Below are positions 47,643 through 64,000 of a stretch of 64,000 nucleotides of DNA, piece after piece. This DNA is from Haliotis asinina. Its lineage: Eukaryota; Mollusca; Gastropoda; Lepetellida; Haliotidae. The stretch is from NCBI RefSeq assembly GCF_037392515.1, contig NC_090288.1:14861969-14925968 (forward strand), given 5' to 3'. A program made the position numbers and the translations under genes. The notes beneath the pieces are model-generated. The model searched no databases and had not been told where the DNA came from. It saw nothing but the letters and a program-made list of their open reading frames with translations. The stretch's first letter is position 1. Each line of letters begins with the position of its first letter.

Positions 47643-50600
47643 ATGTCAGGTGAAAGTACGACGGAAAACATTCCTCTTCAGCCGAGTACATTATCAAAAG
47701 TGTTATCAGAAGAACTGTCCCTAGATTCTTACTTAGATGCACAGACTATAGAAAAAGATGTGCAGCTTGATGAGGACACCAGTGAACTTACCAATCTAGA
47801 AAAACTACCGGATGTTGTTGATGATGCCATAACAGCTGCTGTAGAGGCCGCTGAGAATGTGCAGGCTGCTGAAAATGATGAAGTAGAAAGTATAAACTTG
47901 CAAGAGTCAGATCTGAGTCTCCCTGATGAAGAACCGTTGAATATACCAGATGATGAGTTAGAATTGCCGGATGATGTTGAGGATGAGGAGGATGGAGGAA
48001 GTGAAGCATCAGAGGAAGAGTCTGAAGAAGAGTCAGATGAAGAAGATGAAGAAGAGGAGGAGGAGGAAGAAGAAGAGGAGGAGGAAGAGGCAACTGAAAT
48101 AGAGCCTCCACCTGATTTAACTAGCATCATTGATGGTCCTGAGCCAGTTGCCATGGATACAGACTTGGCAGCAGCTCTTCCCGATGAACTTAAGACTGTA
48201 CCGGAGGAGAGTGTTCCCAGCACCAGTCAAGCAAAGGAGAAGACTACGAAGAAAGGGAAAAAGAGGAAGAAGAAAATGAAAGGTGAAAAGAAAGCTAAAA
48301 AAGCGAAACGGAAGTCTGGATTTAGGAGAAAAAATATCAGGTTAGTCATCTTTTGATTTGAAAAATCATAGTTCCTGAGTATGTTTTGCATCCATAAGAG
48401 AGAGATGTCTTTGTCATTTACCCTAAGAGTACTCCTGGCTTTCTTTTGAACTCTGCAAAGCTGAACAGTCTATGTATCTTAACATAGGTTAAAGTCACCT
48501 TTGCCTTTTCATGAGCAACATACCATTGACAGTCCGATTTGTAATTCATCTTCAGCTATCATGCTTGTCTTAAGAGGAGACTGATGGCATCTGTGGTAGA
48601 CACATGCCACTATTGCATATATCAGTGCTTGTGTTATTGATCACTGGATTGTCTGGTCCAGACTTGATTATTTACACACTGCTGCCATGCATCTGGAATA
48701 TTGCTATGTGCACTGTTAAGCAACAAACCAGTGAACCAGTCGTAACTGGCAACTAAATTGGACTGGATTGTCTGGTTCTGTGAATTCTGTGGGATTATTT
48801 ATCATGTTTTCGTGTGAGTGATTTTCCTAGTCTTTTCAGGCTCCTGATATTTGCTAAATAATTTAGCTGGAATATTGTTGAGGTATAGGATAAAGCATGA
48901 CTCAGTAGCACTCGAGGTCTTACTTCCTGCCACCTGATAGTCGATGGCTTACTTTGCCCAGTCGTAACCGAGTAGTGCTTTATTGTACATATAAACCATC
49001 AGTGACGGACAAGTCGATGCTCATTTAATTCATGCAATGACCCTACTTAACAGTACCTGAAGCGCTAGTAAAATCAGCATAATGACCGTAGACCTAACTA
49101 TAAATAGATAATTTCAACCTAGTATCATTGTTGGTAACCTGATACCTGTGGTTACATTCCTGCCAGAGAAAACATTTACACTTTAAGGTAGATCTTTGAT
49201 CTGTGCTAATATTTTTCAATTGAATTCATTGATTTTGACAATATTTTTCATTTGATTTCAAACACTCACATATCATCTGAATTTGAATGTTGATGTTAAT
49301 ATAGAGTTAGAAAAAACTAAAACCTTGGAAGAGGTCATACTTACAAAAGTAAAACTGGGAAATCGGTCTTCCTTACAAAAAATAAAACTTGGGAGGAAAC
49401 AAAAACCTCAAATGTGGTTATTCTGGGAAAAGTAGCCATGTCTAAACCACATTCACCTTGTCTCTGTAGAATGTTCATTTTGTCAGAAGTCATGCTCACG
49501 CCATATTTCTGTGATACTGCTCAGGTCCATTATCAAAGAAGATGAGCTGGATGCCGAAACTCTGGCTGCCCAGAACGAGGAGTTTGAGAGGAAGAAGCGT
49601 CTCCAAGAGATCCAGAAGACCTTACTTGCCAAGGCACAGGGTCAGAAGGCTGAGGAGAAGGAAAAGGACAAGGACTCCCAACTCAAGTCTTTACTACAAG
49701 GTAACGATGGTAACACTTCATGGTTCTGCTACTTGGTTACAATGGTAACGCTACATAGCTTTGCTGTGCAACAGAGTTAAACTATAGTTACACTGTATGT
49801 CTCCACTACAAGGTAGCTAACTGTTAGAACTGTGCCCTGTTCCTCAAAGTGATTTTAGCTCTAAGATGATCATAACTCCCTTACTTTAGCATTAAGACTT
49901 ACACACCACTACGATTGCTTTGAGGAGTGGGGCCCTGGGCTAGAATTGATCTTCATTAACCCATGCTTGCTTATAGGCGACTAACAAGACTGGGTGGTCA
50001 GGTTTGTTGACAAGCTTGACACAATCATTGGTTCCCTAATTGCGCAGATCAATGCTAATGCTGTTGATCACTGGATTCTCTGATCCAGACTATTAGTTAC
50101 TGACAACCGTCATATAGCTGACATTTTGCTGAGTGCCACGTAAAACTAAACTCACTCACTACAAGTCAACTCTATTAACAAGTAGTAATGCTACATGTCC
50201 ACAACACACATGCTTCATTATGTCATTGTTATGCTCAGCTGCGGAGGAGGAAGCCACCAAGAATGACGATGTTGTGATCTTGGACGAGGAGGACAAGAAG
50301 TCGGAGCCAGAGAAGGAGAAAGGTAACTGCGCTTGATTTAATGATTTGTTGACCATGTATAGCTTTCCAATCTTAGTTTTCTTTAGTTTCACCTCTTTGT
50401 AGTCAAAACACGTTTGTGATGAATGGTGGAGGTGGAAAATTCTGCCTCTGAGGGAATAGTCCCAAGCAACTGATGATAGTCATTAGAGGTGACTGAATGA
50501 ATTGGGTGTTCTGGCACAATTATTGTAGATTGGGTAGATGTGAGCGACATCAGCTCTGATGAAGACATTATATTATGCTTGTGTTACATGAGAGTATTAT

Positions 50601-53600
50601 TGTAGACATGGTCGACATCAGCTTGGATGACGACTGCTTGTTATGCTTGTGTTACATGAGAGTATTATTGTAGCCATGGTCGACATCAGCTCGGATGATG
50701 ACTGCATGTTATGCTTGTGTTACATGAGAGTATTATTGTAGACATGGTCGACATCAGCTCGGATGATGACTGCATGTTATGCTTGTGTTACATGAGAGTA
50801 TTATTGTAGACATGGTCGACATCAGCTCGAATGACGACTGCTTGTTATGCTTGTGTTACATGAGAGTATTATTGTAGACATGGTCGACATCAGCTCGAAT
50901 GACGACTGCTTGTTATGCTTGTGTTACATGAGAGTATTATTGTAGACATGGACGACATCAGCTCGAATGACGACTGCTTGTTATGCTTGTGTTACATGAG
51001 AGTATTATTGTAGACATGGACGACATCAGCTCGGATGACGACTGCTTGTTATGCTTGTGTTACATGAGAGTATTATTGTAGACATGGACGACATCAGCTC
51101 GGATGATGACTGCTTGTTATGCTTGTGTTACATGAGAGTATTATTGTAGACATGGTCGACATCAGCTCGGATGATGACTGCTTGTTATGCTTGTGTTACA
51201 TGAGAGTATTATTGTAGACATGGTCAACATCAGCTCTGATGAAGACATTATATTATGCTTGTGTTACATGACAGTATTATTGTAGACATGGTCGACATCA
51301 GCTCGGATGACGACTGCTTGTTATGCTTGTGTTACATGAGAGTATTATTGTAGACATGGTCGACATCAGCTCGGATGATGACTGCTTGTTATGCTTGTGT
51401 TACATGAGAGTATTATTGTAGACATGGTCGACATCAGCTCGGATGATGACTGCATGTTATGCTTGTGTTACATGAGAGTATTTTTGTAGCTGTGAAGGAC
51501 ATCAGCTTAGATGAAGACAATATGTTACATTTGAGTTATATGAGAGTATTATTGTAGACCTGATCCACATCAGCTCGGATGAAAACTGTGTGTTATACTT
51601 GTGTTACATGAGAGTGTTGTTGTAGATGTGATCGACATCAGCTCGGATGAAGACTGCATGCTATACTTGCGTTACATGAGAGTGTTGTTGTAGGTGTGAT
51701 TGACATCAGCTAGGATGAGGACTGTATGTTATACTTCTGTTACATGAGAGTGTTGTTGTAGATGTGATCGACATCAGCTCGGATGAAGACTGCATGGTTG
51801 TTGAGGACAAGGAGGAAGAAGATGAGGCGGAGGAGGAGGACATGAACAATGGTGGAGGACACATTGATGACGCTCTCAACCGAGCAGATGAACAGGGTCG
51901 TGTTCAGGTTAACATTGGACATCCTAACACTGACCCTGACATCTTCCTCTCACCAAAGATTGCCAAAAACATCAAGCCCCATCAGGTTTGTGAGATATGA
52001 GTGAGTGAGTGAATGTGGTTTTATGTCTTTTTGAGCAATATACAAGCAACATCATGGCAGGAACACCAGAAATGGGCTTCACACATTGTACCCATGTGGG
52101 TCATCGAACCTTGGTGTTGATGAGCCTGTGACCCATGCTCCTTGTGAAAAAATAACGGTCTTTGTATTTGAAACCAAGAGCTGCCCTGTGACACTCGTTG
52201 TTTGTATGTTCAGATCGGTGGTGTTCGGTTCCTGTACGACAATCTGGTGGAGTCACTAGATCGTTACAGCAGCAGCAGCGGCTTCGGCTGCATCCTCGCT
52301 CACAGCATGGGGCTCGGCAAAACCATCCAGATGATAGGCTTCATTGATATCTTCCTGCGTAGCACCAGTGCTAAAACGGCCCTGTGCATAGTGCCTATCA
52401 ACACTCTGCAGAACTGGATGAGTGAGTTCAATCAATGGGTACCCACAGAGCCGACGCCGGAGTTCCCTGGCATGGTATCAAGACCATACAAGGTCTACCT
52501 GATGAATGACAACTACAAGACAATGGCAGCAAGGGCTAAACTACTTGGTAAGGAAAATAAGTTGAAGTGTTTAGTTATACTGTGGGTACTGTTGTCACAA
52601 TGAGCAGTCAGTATAATTTCAAGCCTTCATTCACATCTTTCATGTTGCAAACAAGTGTTGTGCTTATAATACATTGGTAATAATGTTGCCAACCAAAATA
52701 CAATGAAATACCATCTCTGTGCAGATCATAAGTCTGTTAGGAATAAAATGGAGACAGCTGGTTCTATTAAGGTTTGTTTCTTATGCTCATCCCGTTTTTG
52801 CAAATAGTAAACAGTGATTGATTAGTCACTGTCCAGCTTACAATTCCACAAAAGGTTTCAGGAGGGATTGTCAGGATTTTGTTGCTAGATTGCAGCTTTT
52901 ATTACTTGTCATGTGACTAATGGCGGCCTGCTTCAAGTCATTCATCATGTAACTTGGACAAACTCTCTGACATTGGTCGACTCACTGACACTCGCAGCTA
53001 CTGACACGTGCCCCTTATGTCAGATTATCTGGTGATCACTAATTTTGTTATCCAATACCTTTTGTTACGTAATTTACCTCCAGGGACAGTGAGAAGACTT
53101 TTAGTTAAGGGGTTTTAATTTTCTTATCCAAATTTAATAAACCAGACTCTAATGGTGATAATTAATGAAGAAATTTACCTGGACCAAAGTATAGTGTTTA
53201 CTTACCCAGTCTGCTTACCTAAGGTTGCTGTTACTTAGATGGTTTCCACTTTGTTTATCCTTCATGACAGCCTGCATTAACAGTATTTCTCAACTGTTTT
53301 TAGCTAAGCGACATGCCTGATCTGTACACTCATGGATATAGTGTGGGTTGACTTTCACATCACCTTGCTAACACTGTTGCTATAGATTCACCATATCCAT
53401 TTACCGTATATTGTTTTGCTATGAACAGTCCCATGGTAGTCAAGATGGTGTTAAACTTGTGGAAACATTGTGTTTATGTTTTTTGACGGATATGATGTCT
53501 CGGTTCGACTCATGGCAATGGCAATGTTCAAAATGTTTACTTTCCCACAATGCATATGAGTTGTAAAATGAATTCATATGTTTGTTATGGATGAAAAAGT

Positions 53601-56600: not shown

Positions 56601-59600
56601 ACAGACCCTTCATGTGTGTTTGACGTGTGTTTGAGATGTACAGACCCATGGTGTGACTTTAAACCATGCAGAATCTTAATCTATATTTCAGATATGTTTT
56701 CATCATTAGTAAACCCAGGTCCTGATATAGTGGTATGTGATGAAGGACACCGAATCAAGAACAGTCATACAGGAATCTCTCATTCTCTAAAGAACATCCG
56801 CACAAGGTAGGATAAAGCTGTCTGCATTCTTTTGTATCAGTACATACAGCGTTCGAAATAACCGCTGGCCCAAAGTACACTGAGTACATGACCATTGAGT
56901 TCCATGTTGGAGAAAGTCCAACCCCTGCTGGTTGTAAGTGATGACTTTGTGGTTTGGAAGATCAAGTTCAGTGGCTTGGTTGTTGTCATTGTATGACATG
57001 AGTGAATGTCAGTGGATAGATGTCATTGTATGACATGGGTGAATGTCAGTGGATAGACGTCATTGTATGACATGGCTGAATGTCAGTGGATAGACGTCAT
57101 TGTATGATATGGGTGAATGTCAGTGGATAGACGTCATTGTATGACATGGGTGAATGTCAGTGGATAGACGTCATTGTATGACATGGGTGAATGTCAGTGG
57201 ATAGACGTCATTGTATGACATGGGTGAATGTCAGTGGATAGACGTCATTGTATGACATGGGTAGTGGATAGTGGCTTGTGCCAGACTACATCATTAACAT
57301 GCATGGTATAGCTTGAATATTTTCATGTGCAGCCTCTGCAACAAATGGTCTTTATCATGATGATAATGTTTCGTGTATGTTGATTCACCACACCCTTCTG
57401 TGTTCAGACGGAGAGTGGTGTTGACGGGGTACCCGCTGCAGAACAATCTGATGGAGTACTGGTGCATGGTGGATTTTGTCAGGCCCAACTTCCTTGGCAC
57501 CAAGACTGAGTTCTCAAACATGTTTGAGCGGCCTATTATGAACGGCCAGTGTTCTGACAGTACACTGAGTGACATCAAGCTGATGAGGCATCGAGCGTAT
57601 GTGCTGCACAGCTTGCTGGGAGGATTTGTACAAAGGTGAGTCTATCTACCTGGCAACAGCACACACTTACCATGTCATAGAATACATCTACCAGAATCTT
57701 CATTGTAACAGATCATGTAACACATCACATCTACCATGTTACAGAACACTTCTACCAGAACACATCTTCCTTGTAACAGGTCACTTCTATCATGAACAGT
57801 GCACATCTACCATATTGCAGTACCGGTATATGTCTACTATCTTACTGGACACATCTACCATATTGCAGTACCGGTATATGTCTACCATCTTACTGGACAC
57901 ATCTACCATATTGCAGTACCGGTATATGTCTACCGTCTTACTGGATGCATCTTCCATCTTACTGGACACATCTACCATATTGCAGTACCGGTATATGTCT
58001 ACCATCTTACTGGACACATCTACCATATTGCAGTACCGGTATATGTCTACCATCTTACTGGACACATCTACCATATTGCAGTACCTGTATATGTCTACCG
58101 TCTTACTGGATGCATCTACCATATTACTGGACACATCTACCATATTGCAGTACCGGTATATGTCTACCATCTTACTGGATGCATCTACCATCTTACTGGA
58201 CACATCTACCATATTGCAGTACCGGTATATGTCTACCATCTTACTGGACACATCTACCATATAGCAGTATATGTCTACCATCTTACTGGACACATCTACC
58301 ATATTGTAGTACATCCTTTACTGGACACATCTTCCTTGTTATAGATAACTTCTACCGTATTGCAGTACATGTCTACCATGTACTGGACATGTCTGCCATG
58401 TTACAGATCACTTCTACCATGTTACACAGAACATATCTTGATTTGTTTATCTGTTTACAGGCGTGGACACACAGTATTACAGAACGCGTTGCCGCCAAAG
58501 CATGAACATGTTTTCCTCATCAGAATGTCTCCCCTACAACGTACACTTTACAACCAGTTCATGAACACCATCCAGGACTCAAGTGGCGATGGCCCCTTTG
58601 CCACCATGAATGCTCTGAAGGCCTTCGCCGTCTGCTGCAAGGTGGGTTATGTCCAGGATTGCCCATACTATTGCTGCTGTTGCTAGCTCATTTAGAGTTT
58701 ATGTTTTCACATTAGATTCTTATCATTACTATCCTTGAGCAAGGAAGAATAAATCTAGGCAGTAAAAGAGTTGATGGTATCGATTCAGTCTCATTATCAT
58801 TTATTTTAGCAAAGAAAAGAGCCCCACATCTTTTTAAAATCTCATTCAGCATATAGGGGTGGTGGGGTAGTCTAGTGGTAGAAGTGTTTGTATGTCATGA
58901 CTTGATATACAATGGATACAATGTGTGATAACATGCAAAATCAACAACCGACACACCATGTATCTAAATAAGTTGCCGGGTTTTCTCTGTATTCAGTCGT
59001 GCCCAGTTCATCTGAACACTTGTGTTTTTCTTGAATTGTCCGAATAAACAAATTTCTGGATATCTGAACCATGGACCATATGTACATGTACAAAGAAACA
59101 AAGGTAATAAGCCTTGGACATCATCTTTATTGATTGATAAAACCTCAACAGATATCAATGCATTCATAAAATATCTAGCAAACATACGTGCAGTCATGCT
59201 TGCTTGAAGAAATGTGTCTAAGTTTTTTCTGCTGGCTTTGTAGAGAAGCGAGAGGACTTTACTTATAATACCTGTTGTCACTGTCGCCAGCATACTCATA
59301 GTAGCTAATAAACTGATAAAAACATACACATGTTTACTAAGGGGCTCCAGGCTTGCATAGGGATACTGCTCCTTGAATTTACAAATTTCTCTCTTCTCCC
59401 TCACTGAAATGGCATGGCGATCATGTTTTGTTGGTTGATATGCCATTTTGACAGACAACACTTCTGATCCAACAACAGTTTATCAGCATAATTATAGTGA
59501 CAAACTAATTGACATGCTTTGTGAGTTACAGGTAGTTAATCTTCTCACTTTTCAAAGACTGCTGTCTTCTTTCATGTTAGGGCACAGAAGGCCAGTTGGT

Positions 59601-62600
59601 ATTTGCTTGTGTAAACATACTGACAGGTACTCAGCCATCCGGATATACATGACAAAAATATCTATAATTTAGCGTTTGGTATGTAAAAATGACCGTCTGG
59701 TTACGGAAAGCGCTGATCAACCAAATCTCTTCATGCTTAGAGATACCTAGTCTGATGTGTTTGTTCTTCAGCGTCACACTCAGTCTGCAAATTATTGAGT
59801 CTGGACAAGACAATCCAGTGATCAACTTTATTGATCTACACAAGTGGCATACGATGACATGTGCCATCCAAGTTGGCGAGTCTAACTGCCCAATTGTGTT
59901 AGTTGTCGCTGTCAACAAGCATGGGCTGCTGAAGAAGGATTCTAACTTCTATCTTCCTCAGTACCTAATCTGGTACTTTAGCACAGTTTTGATACTGGAT
60001 TGCAATTCTCTCCTCAGATCTGGAACCACCCAGACATTCTGTACAAGCTGGTTAGTCATCAAAAGAACGAAGCTGCTCCAGAGAGTGACCTTGACATTGA
60101 CCCAGATGGAGGAGGGGCTAAGAAGAAGAAAGCTAATCAAAAAGCATCCGATTCTGAAAAGAATGTCATCAGCTATGATTGGGTAAATCATTACTAACTT
60201 TTTAGGACAGAATCCTAGGTTGAGTGACAGCAGCGTTACATGACGTGTAGTGTACTGAAGTAACATTTTGTGGGATTTACTGTTAACCGGAAATATTCTG
60301 TGTCTTGTTAATATTGGGTCAACCTACCCCCAGTCTGTTCTGCAATGAATTATTTTTGCAAGAGTATTAGGCTTTGCGAAAAACAACATAGTTAACAGAT
60401 TGCTTCTTACATCATAATGTAACTTTATTGTTTCAATACTATAGTTGAATTGAAATTGAATAAACTGAAGTATAAAATCAATTACAGTACTCATAAAAGT
60501 TGCCTAACATACATTACAGCTTACTGTTTTCATTTTTTTGTGTTATCGTGTAATATGATTCAAGTGACATCTCGGCTTTCCTCGCCTCGAACTTCATGTT
60601 TGGACACAATGTTTAATGCTAAAATATATGCAAGAAGCATTTTTGTCACAGTTGTAACCCAGAATGATACATCCACTTACTTCAATAGTATACTGTAGGT
60701 AGTGATTTTTTACTTCAGATTAGCTTGATTTTACCCAAAACTTTCATCACTATCTAAAGTGTTGTTTTTGCGAGGACAGTATCCACTGCTGTAATATGAT
60801 TGGCTGTCTAATGACTTATGCATGATTCTGACCAATCACGGTCTTCATAGCAGAATGGAGGCAGAAAAGCATCATTAGCAACCAGTCTTTATCCAGTAAA
60901 ATCACTTCTTACAACTGCTAAAAGACTCTTGGCAAGGGTATAGTGACATTTTTTATGTTCAGAGCTTTTGAACGATACCCGCCAATAAACGATGCCTTAC
61001 GTGTTATTGATAAGAAGCTTCCAAAACAGAGGTATTTTCTCCTGTTGTATCTGATATTGGGAAAAGACAACCATACATATCGTTTCAGAAATCATTTCAT
61101 AACAAGTAAATGCATCTGGTTAACTGGCACTGAAAGAGTTAATATTACTACGCCGAGTATTTTTCGTGTGGGGAACAGAAACGCCAAATTCGCAATATTT
61201 CTGATTTACAGTATGTTAGCTACCAAGGGGATTTCCAGATTTGAAGTTCAGATATTTCGTTTCCCCACTCTTCATATCATAACAGCCAGATTCAGCCTTG
61301 AATCTGTGTTGACGTGTAGGGTTACATGTTTTATAGTTTCACCATTTCACACAGAAGACGCCATTTGAATTTATAGAGTGATTTTCCCCATATTCATGTG
61401 TAATACATAGCTACTTCAGTCTTTGCTGAGTTGCATTTAGCCAGGTCAGGTCCAGCAGTTGTCAGTGCCCTGAATTGAGTCCATGTCATGTTTTGTAGGC
61501 TCATGACTTAATGAAGGACTACAAGCCAGGGCTGATTGAGAATGGAGGCAAAATGGCCATCCTCTTCTCAATGATTGAGCAGACCCTTGCACTGGGTGAA
61601 AAGATGCTGATCTTCAGGTATGTTTCACAATCACTGTTAGTTCTATATTGATGAACAATGAGGGGTATTAAGAATATCTCTTGTACTTGATGTTTTTCTA
61701 TTATCGTAATCTTTTAGATGGTAAGTGTGCATTATATTGTGTGAAGATCTGGGTTAGAATTGATCATCAGTAACCCATGCTTGTCAAAAAAGACTTACAG
61801 GATTGGGCGGTCAGACTCACTGTCTTGGTTGACACATGTCATGGTATCCTAACTGTGTAGATCAAAGCTAATGCTGTTTATCACTGGACTGACTGGTCCA
61901 GACTGGTCCAGTCTTGATTATTTAGCTGGAACATTGAAGAACATGTTTGTATTTTATATACGATCCCAAATGGACGCTTCTCTGTTGTAGAGGCACGTGA
62001 TGAATTCACTCACCAACAGTTTGCTTGAAATTATGATCAGCAGCCTATTATGTATAAAAATATTTCCTCTCTATCAGGAAAAATGTTCATCTGAAGTGAA
62101 ATTTTAAAACTTTCTCTAGGTTTATAAACAAGTTTTGGGTAAACAGTTAAAAGGATAACATTTTCACACTTGTCTCAGTTTCCAACATGGACTGACATTC
62201 TGACATTGTGGTGCATTCCTTATACAAAATGGCAGAATGGGAAATAATTCTCATGCTTGAGATTACCAATGCATGTAGACTTATTTTTAGCGATTTGATG
62301 TCCGATAAATTTAGATCACCTATGATTCAGTTGTGCTGCTGATGGGATGCCTTGATCAACACCTTGAGCATGTACTAGTTGTGTGGCCATGTGCGAGGTA
62401 TAAATAACCTATAATGATGATAATAAATATGGATTTCTCTGTGTCATTAATGGAGATTTTGTGTTGATTGTGTTATATGCTTGTTGTTACAGTCAGAGTC
62501 TGTTCACATTGAACTTGATTGAGGACCTGTTGTCCCAGGTGGATGTGCCATGCCCTGACATGCAGGAAAAGTGGGCCCGGAACAAGTCATACTTCCGTCA

Positions 62601-64000
62601 GTAGATTTTCCATCTATTTGTGCTGTAGCTTACCTGAACATGTTCAGCTTCTGTCTGTAGATTTTCTGTCATTTTGTACGGTAGCTCACCTGAACATGTT
62701 CTACTGCCTTTGAACAAGTTTTACTTCCTTCAATTGTTTTCCATGATTTTGTACTGTACATCACCTACAAGTGTTCTAGTTCCATCAGTAGTGTTTCTGT
62801 CGTTTTTGCTGTAGCTCACCTGAACATGTTCTTCTTCCATCAGTAGCTTTTCCATCATTTGCACTGTAGCTCATCTGCACATGTTCTACTTCCATGATTG
62901 ATTTTTCATCTTTTGAACATGTAGCTCACCTTGTAATTGCAGCCATGCATGCTGAAAATTTTCAGAAGCTTTCCGTCATTGTGGGAGGTGTTATGTATAC
63001 TGATAGGCACAAATTACTTGGGAGCTCATTGAACATATCCCAGGAACTTGTAAACTATGTAAATGGTTGTTCAGTAATGAATGATTCTTTTGATATATAC
63101 CTGATCAAGTAATTTTGAGAAAGATTGAAAACAATTTGATATCCAGATTCATTTGGCCATAGTGTTTACTAGTATATCGGAGTCAAGATACGTAAGTTTT
63201 GATGATTTCACTGGTTATTGATGCACAAACTGAATGTTGACTAGTTTACATTGTAACCCCAGGTTTGGATGGGAGCACGCCGGGTACGGAGAGAGAGAAG
63301 CTGATCAACCAGTTCAACGACCCTGAGAACAAACGATGCTGGCTTTTCCTCCTGTCTACTAGGTAGGACTCTGATCTAACAACAACCAAGATCAAAGAGA
63401 TAATTCTCCTTATTACAATGAATTTCTGACACCATTCTCAAGTAGAATTCTAAAACATTCATTGTAATAAAGAAGTTGTACTGCAATAGTCATCTCCTTT
63501 TCTAAATTGATTTTAAAGATAGACGATGTCTTATATGAAGTTAAAAATGTGAAAGTTGCCACAATCAGAAGGTCCCCCAGTGAAAAAGATCTGACATTAC
63601 AAGACTTTCTGCATCATAATACAGTTCCACACAGGAAATATTTGGAGATGGAAATCGTGATTATATGTGATGTCGTGATGCCTGGTTATCAGACTATATT
63701 TTTTCACAGCCACTTAAATGCTTTCCACATTTTGAAACCTAAAACAAATTTTGTCCTGTTTGCAACTCGGGGGCTTTGTCTTGGAAGTGTTGGGTCTCTT
63801 TGTTGTCTTTCATTTTTGTCAGAAGCTCTGTTGATGGTCGGGCTACGATAGGCTGTACATGATAGTTACGGAGCCCAGCTGGCAGCTGGGGCTGGTTCTA
63901 TAACATTGTGCCTTCATATCTGCAGGGCTGGCAGCTGGGGGTGGTTCTGAGTTTTAATATAACATTCTGCCTTCGTATCTGCAGGGCTGGCTGCTTGGGG
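47643..64000 (+). CDS. Helicase ARIP4 / RAD54-like 2 (SNF2-family ATPase), 3'-truncated by window
   Basis: RAD54L2/ARIP4 is a nuclear SNF2-type DNA-dependent ATPase that modulates nuclear-receptor transcription and is linked to SUMO. Coding exons: 47643-48340, 49525-49700, 50239-50322, 51762-51985, 52214-52547, 55735-55917, 56692-56806, 57408-57635, 58461-58641, 60018-60182, 61499-61617, 62493-62596, 63263-63362 and 63985 onward. Phases are consistent for 909 codons. Residues 1-232 are acidic (a poly-Glu tract), then lysine-rich. Walker A is GLGKT (427-431) and the DEAH-type box is DEGH (583-586). Helicase C motifs begin at [17 protein letters not shown] and FNDPENK...FLLSTRAGCLG. Three SUMO-interaction-like motifs occur (VVIL 303, VIDI 321, VIDV 552). 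The C-terminal part, some 500-600 residues in human, lies outside. Several introns carry minisatellites abutting splice sites. Confidence 0.94.
48600..48740 (-). repeat. Family I dispersed repeat fragment
   Basis: Reverse-orientation text 'gatcactggattgtctggtc' followed by 'cagacttgattatttacaca' and 'tggaatattgctatgtgcac'. In RAD54L2 intron 1. Confidence 0.6.
49838..49940. mobile_element. Short foldback element
   Basis: Arms 'tgttcctcaaagtgatttta' and 'cgattgctttgaggagtggg' are near-inverse copies, with the 'gctctaagatgatc' core shared with the other short foldback elements. About 100 bp. In RAD54L2 intron 2. Confidence 0.5.
49945..50160 (-). repeat. Family I dispersed repeat
   Basis: Reverse-orientation family I: 'acccatgcttgcttataggc', 'aagactgggtggtcaggttt', 'gatcactggattctctgatc', 'tgagtgccacgtaaaactaa'. 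In RAD54L2 intron 2, ending about 80 bases before exon 3. Confidence 0.65.
50534..51761 (+). repeat. 68-bp tandem array of the RAD54L2 exon 4 acceptor and exon start
   Basis: The 'gtag' acceptor tetramer recurs every 68 bases with no indel from 50534 through 51758, 19 occurrences in all; the last is the true exon 4 acceptor. Each unit is 'gtag', then 'acatggtcgacatcagctcg', then 'gatgatgactgc', then a 32-base intron-like tail. The first part is a copy of the exon 4 start (VIDISSDED). The last four units (51554-51690 starts) are closest to the exon. In the exon's frame each copy would encode [12 protein letters not shown] followed by a stop at the next 'tag'. Confidence 0.95.
52003..52145 (+). 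repeat. Family II dispersed repeat with GTGA head
   Basis: Starts 'gagtgagtgagtgaatgtgg', then 'gagcaatatacaagcaac', 'ggaacaccagaaatgggctt' and 'gtgggtcatcgaacc', which is a decayed B-box complement. Lies in the short RAD54L2 intron 4 (51986-52213), filling most of it. Confidence 0.65.
53820..54760 (-). mobile_element. Non-LTR retrotransposon 3' fragment (minus strand)
   Basis: A minus-strand frame ending near 53972 reads [20 protein letters not shown], then [11 protein letters not shown] and [15 protein letters not shown]. This is the conserved tail seen after the reverse transcriptase in many invertebrate LINEs ('...KYxxLAxE...VxPIVxGALG'). Upstream frames on the same strand continue in other phases, so it carries frameshifts and is dead. 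It sits in the 3.2-kb RAD54L2 intron 5 and is a different family from 41905-42260. Confidence 0.6.
55358..55520 (+). repeat. Dispersed repeat with (CCGT)n tract
   Basis: 'cctcgcaacgtattttgcag' leads to 'gggtattaaaatgcaccccg' and a 'tccgtccgtccctctgtccg' run, then 'cttcaccaaacttggcacat'. I recognise this arrangement as a widespread invertebrate dispersed repeat. It occurs once in the window. Confidence 0.5.
56150..56680. repeat. Degenerate minisatellite, roughly 28-40 bp units
   Basis: Many imperfect copies of 'tgtgtttgagacatacagac' with 'ccttgatg'. Units vary in length, indicating an old array. It ends within about 50 bases of the exon 7 acceptor (56691) of RAD54L2. Confidence 0.75.
56994..57260. 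repeat. 37-bp minisatellite, about 7 copies
   Basis: The unit 'gacatgggtgaatgtcagtg' plus 'gatagacgtcattgtat' is repeated with few differences. It lies in RAD54L2 intron 7 (56807-57407). No similarity to the flanking exons is obvious. Confidence 0.9.
57640..58460. repeat. 46-bp minisatellite with degenerate flanks filling RAD54L2 intron 8
   Basis: The core (about 57811-58320) repeats 'acatctaccatattgcagta' then 'ccggtatatgtctaccatct' then 'tactgg'. Some units carry an extra block containing 'atgcatcttccatctt'. Because 46 is not a multiple of three, long open frames of 170-240 codons run through it in all three plus frames and one minus frame. These are artefacts. Degenerate copies extend outwards and nearly fill the intron between exon 8 (ends 57635) and exon 9 (starts 58461). 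Confidence 0.9.
58855..58930 (+). repeat. tRNA-derived SINE head (family II)
   Basis: 'ggtggtggggtagtctagtg' and 'gtagaagtg' form a Pol III A-box-like start. The B box is decayed. In RAD54L2 intron 9. Confidence 0.45.
58994..59716. mobile_element. Tigger/pogo-like DNA transposon relic B
   Basis: Same family as 37679-39276: left end 'cagtcgtgccc', then 'ctggatatctgaacca', 'gagaagcgagaggacttta' and 'ttctttcatgttagggcac' in matching order. Between 59340 and 59445 the minus strand encodes [19 protein letters not shown], which matches the N-terminal CENP-B/Tigger helix-turn-helix. The catalytic region is missing. The right end is cut off near 59716, before a family I repeat starts at 59757. In RAD54L2 intron 9. 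Confidence 0.8.
59757..59965 (+). repeat. Family I dispersed repeat
   Basis: 'cagcgtcacactcagtctgc', 'gtctggacaagacaatccag', 'catacgatgacatgtgccat', 'caacaagcatgggctgctga'. It ends about 50 bases before RAD54L2 exon 10. Confidence 0.65.
60183..61498. other. RAD54L2 intron 10, no feature recognised
   Basis: A 1.3-kb intron without recognisable repeats or genes. The open frame at about 60943-61368 has no conserved look or splice context. Confidence 0.4.
61744..61935 (-). repeat. Family I dispersed repeat
   Basis: Reverse-orientation family I: 'acccatgcttgtcaaaaaag', 'ggattgggcggtcagactca', 'gacacatgtcatggtatcct', 'atcactggactgactggtcc'. In RAD54L2 intron 11. Confidence 0.65.
62580..62930 (+). 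repeat. 56-bp tandem array derived from the RAD54L2 exon 12 end and donor
   Basis: The real junction is 'gaacaagtcatacttcc|gtcagtag' (exon ends 62596). Copies of the same text follow: 'gaacatgttcagcttctgtc' (62636), 'gaacatgttctactgcc' (62692), 'gaacaagttttacttccttc' (62712), 'acaagtgttctagttccatc' (about 62767), 'gaacatgttcttcttccatc' (62822) and 'cacatgttctacttccatg' (about 62878). Spacing is mostly 55-56 bases. The intronic part is repeated too ('agattttccatc', 'gtagctcacctgaacatg'). Confidence 0.8.
63398..63478. repeat. Short inverted repeat (hairpin)
   Basis: The arms 'ctccttattacaatgaat' and 'attcattgtaataaagaag' are reverse complements with a loop of about 40 bases, in RAD54L2 intron 13. 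Confidence 0.6.
63878..63984 (+). repeat. Two imperfect copies of the RAD54L2 exon 14 acceptor and exon start
   Basis: 'gctggcagctgggg' at 63878 and 63927 corresponds to the true exon start 'gctggctgcttgggg' at 63986. Each is followed by 'tggttct' and then 'taacatt.tgccttc.tatct' with 'gcag', the acceptor tract of the next copy. The spacings are 49 and 59 bases, the difference being a short insertion. Two decoy 3' splice sites (one clear at 63925) therefore lie just upstream of the true one at 63984. Confidence 0.75.

What the first reader, a model, noticed from the sequence alone, without database searches (positions are those of the whole stretch)
50534..51761. A 19-fold ladder of near-identical 3' splice sites leading into RAD54L2 exon 4
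The acceptor tetramer and the first ~32 coding bases of exon 4 are repeated every 68 bases, in exact register with no indel, for 18 intronic units before the true exon. The unit straddles the splice junction, so intron end and exon start have been amplified together. Each decoy offers the spliceosome a 'gtag' acceptor plus exon-like sequence, including the VxDISS motif. Use of a decoy would add 68n bases (a frameshift unless n is a multiple of 3) and usually an early stop at the next 'tag'. This could act as a copy-number-tuned brake on correct splicing, or the cell may ignore it. Units nearest the exon match it best, as expected if the array grew outward from the exon.
Basis: partly seen in the sequence, partly recalled or inferred. 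Interest (0 to 1): 0.85.

Follow-up and report, generated by a model that had tools for sequence, protein, structure and literature searches.

The report
Tandem-repeated splice acceptor in RAD54L2-like gene
A stretch covering the end of an intron and the start of the next exon has been copied head to tail about 18 times in a gene of what is probably a marine snail; it looks like a long but probably harmless example of a repeat type known from lancelets, and a handy natural test of how cells choose splice sites.

Summary
The ladder is real. At 50538-51796 a 68-base unit repeats with no indel; an acceptor AG ends at 51761 and at each of 18 earlier 68-base steps, 18 of 18 kept. The unit is about 33 bases of intron end plus 35 of exon 4 start. 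Copy k=2 is identical to the real region from -24 to +35. All 18 decoys, if used, give an in-frame stop, 17 exactly at the next unit's TAG. The claimed outward gradient fails: among complete units k3 and k4 match worst (55, 56 of 68), k5-k17 56-60.

The kind is known: lancelet 'mirages', minisatellite-like duplications of intron/exon boundaries, including the 3' type; RT-PCR suggested normal splicing there. Minisatellites fill 10% of a 200-kb sample of this genome. Strong tandem copies straddle 3 of 38 tested junctions of this gene, about the rate of random positions in it (84 of 1000); a SMARCA2/4-like gene has another acceptor ladder. Best reading: a neutral mirage, decoys mostly ignored. 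A splicing brake is untested; the exon 4 acceptor is second weakest of 19 by pyrimidine count.

The parts
50239..50322 (+). exon 3, ends ...GAGAAAG|gtaact (one base carried over), encodes ...[19 protein letters not shown]
   Evidence: open frame and GT-AG edges
50538..51796 (+). 68-base tandem array, from the exon-like half of the outermost unit (k=18) to base +35 of the real exon 4
50536..51693 (+). 18 decoy acceptors, AG ending at 50537, 50605, ... 51693 (every 68 bases); each leads to an in-frame stop
51602..51660 (+). decoy k=2: identical to the real acceptor region from -24 to +35 (AG ends 51625)
51760..51761 (+). acceptor taken as the real one: the only one of 19 that gives an open frame through exon 4; pyrimidines 7 of 17 at -20..-4, second lowest of 19 acceptors of this gene
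51762..51985 (+). exon 4 (224 bases), starts [16 protein letters not shown], donor CATCAG|gtttgt
62577..62931 (+). second junction-straddling array of the same gene: about 55-base units that resemble the last 20 bases of exon 12 (16 of 20) and its donor (62596|gtcagt); GT kept in 1 of 6 downstream copies
63878..64000 (+). third junction-straddling duplication: acceptor of exon 14 (AG ends 63984) copied 59 bases upstream (AG ends 63925), with a further partial copy

Best explanation
A neutral 'mirage': a minisatellite made by repeated tandem duplication of the intron 3/exon 4 junction of a RAD54L2-like gene, in a probably molluscan genome rich in minisatellites. Shown: the array, its straddling of the frame-defined junction, the stops after every decoy, similar arrays at other junctions, and a junction hit rate like the background. 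Inferred: the spliceosome uses the last acceptor because exon 4 is defined as a unit with its own donor, so the acceptor giving the shortest exon wins; the 18 upstream copies are mostly ignored. Occasional use of the nearest copies (k1, k2; exons of 292 and 360 bases) would make transcripts with early stops that nonsense-mediated decay removes.
For: Array and register. Decoy read-out: 18 of 18 stop. Precedents with the same anatomy: lancelet globin BflGb6 copies the 3' end of an intron plus the 5' part of exon 2, and the authors' RT-PCR suggested no interference (PMC3087553 passages); Adh and troponin C mirages are said not to generate aberrant mRNAs, and PGBD5 has such repeats (PMC3902484 passage); in the human ABCA7 VNTR, whose 25-bp units each start with the donor GT, retention of one unit was 2 +/- 1% (PMC5954066 passages). 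Background: 31 arrays (period >=30, copies >=5) covering 20,325 of 200,000 sampled bases (7 of 20 pieces had no array, and 7 arrays lie in one larger tandem repeat). 3 of 38 junctions of this gene carry strong straddling copies against 84 of 1000 random positions in the gene span and 299 of 2000 in the 200-kb sample. A further acceptor ladder (5 AGs, 56-base unit) in a SMARCA2/4-like gene, 1 of 22 SNF2-domain matches examined in 20 fetched pieces.
Against: No RNA was seen, so use of 51761 rests on reading frame. Local sequence cannot tell k=2 from the real site (identical -24..+35), and the real acceptor has the second poorest pyrimidine tract of 19 in the gene (7/17; exon 15 has 6, the others 8-14), so leakage to decoys may be appreciable. 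In units k5-k18 the exon-like half has 15 of 35 variable sites and the intron-like half 2 of 33 (Fisher p 0.0006; lowest of 68 circular windows), which could hint at constraint on the acceptor half; without k8 and k18 it is 6/35 against 1/33 (p 0.11), and over all 18 units 17/35 against 10/33 (p 0.14).
Confidence: 0.78

Rival explanations
1. Copy-number-tuned brake: decoy acceptors compete with the real one, each use yields a premature stop, so the number of units sets how much functional RAD54L2-like protein is made.
For: All 18 decoys keep AG and poison the message; k=2 equals the real site locally; second weakest acceptor of 19; skewed variation in part of the array. In human ABCA7 the length of a splice-site VNTR correlates with exon 19 skipping and inversely with expression (PMC5954066 passages).
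Against: No expression data. In the ABCA7 case one-unit retention did not depend on VNTR length. Lancelet mirages reportedly splice normally. Junction arrays occur at about background rate.
Confidence: 0.07
2. Array first: an intronic minisatellite existed and exon 4 was extended 35 bases into its last unit by a shift of the splice site.
For: The same sequence exists on both sides of the junction; direction cannot be read from the array alone.
Against: The exon part encodes [10 protein letters not shown], which recalled human RAD54L2 parallels with VIELSSGEED at the same place (recalled, not tested here). In the SMARCA2/4-like ladder the exon-edge residues align to BRG1/SNF2L2 from residue 1, so there the exon part looks ancestral.
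Confidence: 0.08
3. Assembly artefact: a collapsed or falsely expanded repeat.
For: Copy number cannot be verified without reads; only one copy of the locus is found in the assembly.
Against: Units carry distinct variants, the contig is 66 Mb long, and other junctions show the same kind of array. Copy number may still be off.
Confidence: 0.04

Closest known systems
Mirages of lancelet genes (Adh3, troponin C, globins BflGb6 and BflGb9, PGBD5); PMC3087553 and PMC3902484, passages read
   [quoted passage not shown] the 3' type holds intron end plus exon start; many copies keep splice signals; homogenised interior, divergent edges; unit length within the 10-72 bp given for Adh3
   Different: Different animal group (probably a vetigastropod); 18 decoys against 6 and 3 units in the two BflGb6 haplotypes; every decoy here leads to a stop; no RT-PCR here
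Human ABCA7 intron 18 VNTR (PMC5954066, passages)
   Same: Each 25-bp unit begins with the splice site of the flanking exon (GT of exon 18); 23.7 units in the reference; leakage measured
   Different: Donor, not acceptor; unit intronic; length affects skipping of the next exon
Human 6-16/IFI6 minisatellite with multiple splice donor sites (Turri et al. 1995; title seen in reference lists only; paper not held)
   Same: By its title, a minisatellite that multiplies a splice site
   Different: Donor sites; details not read here
Internal tandem repeats at exon-intron boundaries of human duplicated genes (PMC2812944, passages)
   Same: Minisatellites at boundaries can change splicing and may form novel introns
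   Different: Units average 30 bp, repeated 4 times; genes in segmental duplications

Membership tests
mirage (tandem duplication of intron/exon boundary) | minisatellite-like head-to-tail repeat | tested here: met
   period 68, 18.4 copies, 0% indels
mirage (tandem duplication of intron/exon boundary) | repeat unit spans an exon-intron boundary | tested here: met
   35 exon bases shared with k=2 without mismatch; junction set by frame and GT-AG; no transcript seen
mirage (tandem duplication of intron/exon boundary) | copies carry splice signals (many but not all in lancelet) | tested here: met
   AG in 18 of 18 decoys
mirage (tandem duplication of intron/exon boundary) | interior homogenised, edges excluded from homogenisation | tested here: met
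   k5-k17 nearly uniform apart from k8; k1-k4 and k18 divergent
mirage (tandem duplication of intron/exon boundary) | length differs between haplotypes | not testable with these tools
   no second haplotype or reads held
mirage (tandem duplication of intron/exon boundary) | regular splicing not disturbed | not testable with these tools
   no RNA data
intron gain by tandem duplication of AGGT | the duplication creates a new intron | tested here: not met
   copies lie inside the existing intron 3 and the frame stops after each decoy; a new intron that skips the frame test was not looked for with RNA
NAGNAG tandem acceptors | acceptors 3 bases apart (definition recalled) | tested here: not met
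   spacing 68 bases

The most novel reading that the evidence does not exclude
The 18 decoys are live poison acceptors: a heritable, copy-number-variable dial on the dose of a RAD54L2-like protein, with the acceptor half of the unit held constant by selection while the exon-like half drifts.
Probability: 0.07. Interest if true: 0.75.

Novelty: new member of a known kind. Interest (0 to 1): 0.42.

Why it matters
A row of 19 acceptors, one of them (k=2) a perfect local copy of the real site that differs mainly in position, is a natural version of the classic duplicated-splice-site experiments (recalled): it can tell first-AG or 5' to 3' choice, which would pick the far end, from exon definition, which would pick 51761. 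If the rate seen here (3 of 38 junctions of one gene) held elsewhere, this genome would contain very many such ladders, and the question could be put genome-wide from ordinary RNA-seq. For screens of raw sequence it is also a warning that repeated splice sites are to be expected in minisatellite-rich genomes.

Tried and rejected
Array extending further upstream in degenerate form: 50323-50537 aligned to the unit scores 12 against a null mean of 11.5 (p 0.44), and 50480-50537 p 0.09: not supported, though ATTATTGTAG recurs there. Dispersed repeat family: the unit was found only here. Junctions as favoured sites for repeats: 3 of 38 against 84 of 1000 random positions in the gene span: no enrichment, and with these numbers no clear depletion. 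Weak extra candidates, not counted among the 3: donor of exon 2 (score 15, p 0.005 and 0.0025), donor of exon 19 (score 17, p 0.005), acceptor of exon 8 (score 14, p 0.01). Exon 13 was not located and its edges were not tested. Among the 20 SNF2 pieces, repeats near a match edge also showed in L045 (array starting beside a donor, read by eye) and L054 (array ending some 40 bases before the match); neither was counted. An earlier table put the exon 4 acceptor lowest of 16; with exons 15, 17 and 21 added it is second lowest of 19. Solved structures and Pfam gave an ATRX/SNF2 relationship only; none of the 56 PDB sequences listed was named RAD54L2. NCBIfam on the SMARCA-like exon gave four matches far below cut-off. 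Paper searches: (one search was on RAD54L2; one search listed 12 of 149 papers; one search listed one abalone paper, whose passages describe an intronic minisatellite and, in those passages, no splice-site ladder). No listing showed a mollusc mirage, but the library holds only open-licence papers.
Full report
What is there. The window lies in a 1.14-Gb, 159-contig assembly on a 66-Mb contig. Six matches to the Pfam family Egg_lysin, a family that I recall from abalone and other vetigastropods, suggest an abalone-like mollusc; no tool names the species. From 47643 onward a gene reads exon by exon as an SNF2 ATPase; a joined stretch of exons 3 to 5 is closest among solved structures to ATRX and matches the Pfam SNF2-related domain.

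The array. Between exon 3 (ends 50322) and exon 4 (51762-51985) a 68-base unit is repeated without indels. Placed in register, an AG ends at 51761-68k for every k from 0 to 18, with GTAG at 19 of 19. A unit consists of about 33 bases of intron end (TTATGCTTGTGTTACATGAGAGTATTATTGTAG in most interior copies) and 35 bases of exon start. Seventeen intronic units are complete; the outermost keeps only the exon-like half (29/34 against 10/34). Copy k=2 is identical to the real region from -24 to +35.

History. Identity to the real site is 60, 67, 55 and 56 of 68 for k1 to k4, 56-60 for k5-k17 and 39 for k18, so there is no steady decline from the exon outward. Units k5-k17 are almost uniform apart from k8; k1-k4 and k18 are divergent; k8 shares with k18 a set of variants that is rare in the interior. 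This suggests a homogenised interior with older edges, and perhaps a block duplication that carried a k18-like unit inward. An attempt to trace the array further upstream gave no significant alignment.

What a decoy would do. Exon 3 was joined in a script to each acceptor. Only k=0 stays open to the end of exon 4. The other 18 reach a stop: k1 inside its exon-like half, the 17 others exactly at the TAG that forms the next unit's acceptor. This follows from the phase: one base carried over from exon 3 plus 68 bases makes 23 codons, the last being TAG. So every decoy is a potential poison site, whatever its number.

How the real site could win. The exon 4 acceptor has 7 pyrimidines in the 17 positions -20 to -4, second lowest of 19 acceptors of this gene (exon 15 has 6, the others 8-14), and the decoys have 7 or 8. 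Local sequence therefore gives the real site little or no advantage, and none over k=2. What differs is position: the real acceptor gives the shortest exon (224 bases against 292 to 1448). Choice by exon definition would select it; choice of the first suitable AG after the donor would not. This is inference; no RNA was available.

Background. In 20 arbitrary 10-kb pieces, arrays of period 30 or more and at least 5 copies number 31 and cover 20,325 of 200,000 bases; they are clustered (7 of 20 pieces have no array even at period 10 and 3 copies, and 7 arrays in L014 lie in one larger tandem repeat). For 38 junctions of this gene the 40 bases around the junction were aligned to the adjacent 1 kb: 3 have strong straddling copies (scores 40, 24 and 28; shuffles for these at most 18): exon 4 acceptor, exon 12 donor and exon 14 acceptor (21 junctions; 17 further ones, which also repeats three). 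Random 40-mers in the same gene span reach a score of 24 in 84 of 1000 cases, and in the 200-kb sample in 299 of 2000. So the rate at junctions (8%) is like that of the gene's own surroundings and below that of the sample: no sign that junctions are favoured, with small numbers.

Other ladders. The exon 12 donor (62596|gtcagt) opens an array of about 55-base units that resemble the last 20 exon bases (16 of 20) and run on past the donor; of 6 downstream rows listed, one is followed by GT, three by AT and two by TT. The exon 14 acceptor is copied 59 bases upstream. Of 43 SNF2-domain matches two lie in the window; 22 of the other 41 were examined in 20 pieces, and one has a clear acceptor ladder: L057, AG ends at 181, 237, 293, 349 and the real one at 405, unit of 56 bases with the first 8 exon bases. 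Its exon translates to a BRG1/SNF2L2-like stretch aligned from the first residue, so the exon edge looks like the ancestral part there. All 4 decoys there lead to stops in the frame of the exon.

Known relatives. Tandem repeats spanning intron/exon boundaries are known in lancelets as mirages. [quoted passage not shown] the authors write that mirages seem not to interfere with regular splicing, and describe homogenised interiors with excluded boundaries (PMC3087553, passages). PMC3902484 (one passage) adds Adh, troponin C and PGBD5. For donors, the human ABCA7 VNTR begins each unit with the exon 18 GT; one-unit retention was 2 +/- 1% and not affected by length, while skipping of exon 19 rose with length (PMC5954066, passages). 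An intronic minisatellite whose repeat number varies between individuals is reported in the Pacific abalone TSSK1-like gene (PMC6905558, passages). Human RAD54L2 needs its SUMO-interacting motifs to bind SUMO-modified TOP2 (PMC10699776, passages); the repeated exon start (VIDISSDED) looks like such a motif, by recall of the motif only. Decoy products would end before the ATPase domain.

A hint against pure neutrality. Among k5-k18, variable sites are 15 of 35 in the exon-like half and 2 of 33 in the intron-like half (Fisher p 0.0006; no other of 68 circular windows is as low). This weakens to 6/35 against 1/33 (p 0.11) without k8 and k18, and to 17/35 against 10/33 (p 0.14) over all 18 units. 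Units are not independent, so I read it as a lead only.

Verdict. A real and long mirage-type acceptor ladder, the first that I know of in what is probably a mollusc (paper searches listed under Tried and rejected, open-licence library only), most likely neutral. It deserves a look at RNA because it is a clean natural test of splice-site choice, not because it stands alone.

Noticed in passing
62577-62931: About 55-base array straddling the exon 12 donor of the same gene; GT is lost in 5 of 6 downstream copies (AT in three, TT in two), unlike the acceptor ladder where AG is kept in 18 of 18.
   Followed up: partly
63878-64000: Exon 14 acceptor duplicated with 59-base spacing, 43 bases at 91% identity, plus a further partial copy.
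   Followed up: partly
L057 130-413: Acceptor ladder of 5 AGs (one real), 56-base units at 98%, in a SMARCA2/4-like gene; its acceptor copies look more pyrimidine-rich than those of the RAD54L2-like array (by eye).
   Followed up: partly
49700 in the window; 69627 counted from window base 1 through the adjoining pieces (in L035): Weak tandem copies over the donors of exons 2 and 19 (p 0.0025-0.005 among 38 tests).
   Followed up: no
L014 220-9558: Seven 53-base arrays whose starts are 1487 bases apart, that is a larger tandem repeat containing a minisatellite.
   Followed up: no
57802-58312: Minisatellite with periods 48, 69, 117 and 165 reported, in the intron before exon 9, open in several reading frames on both strands.
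   Followed up: no
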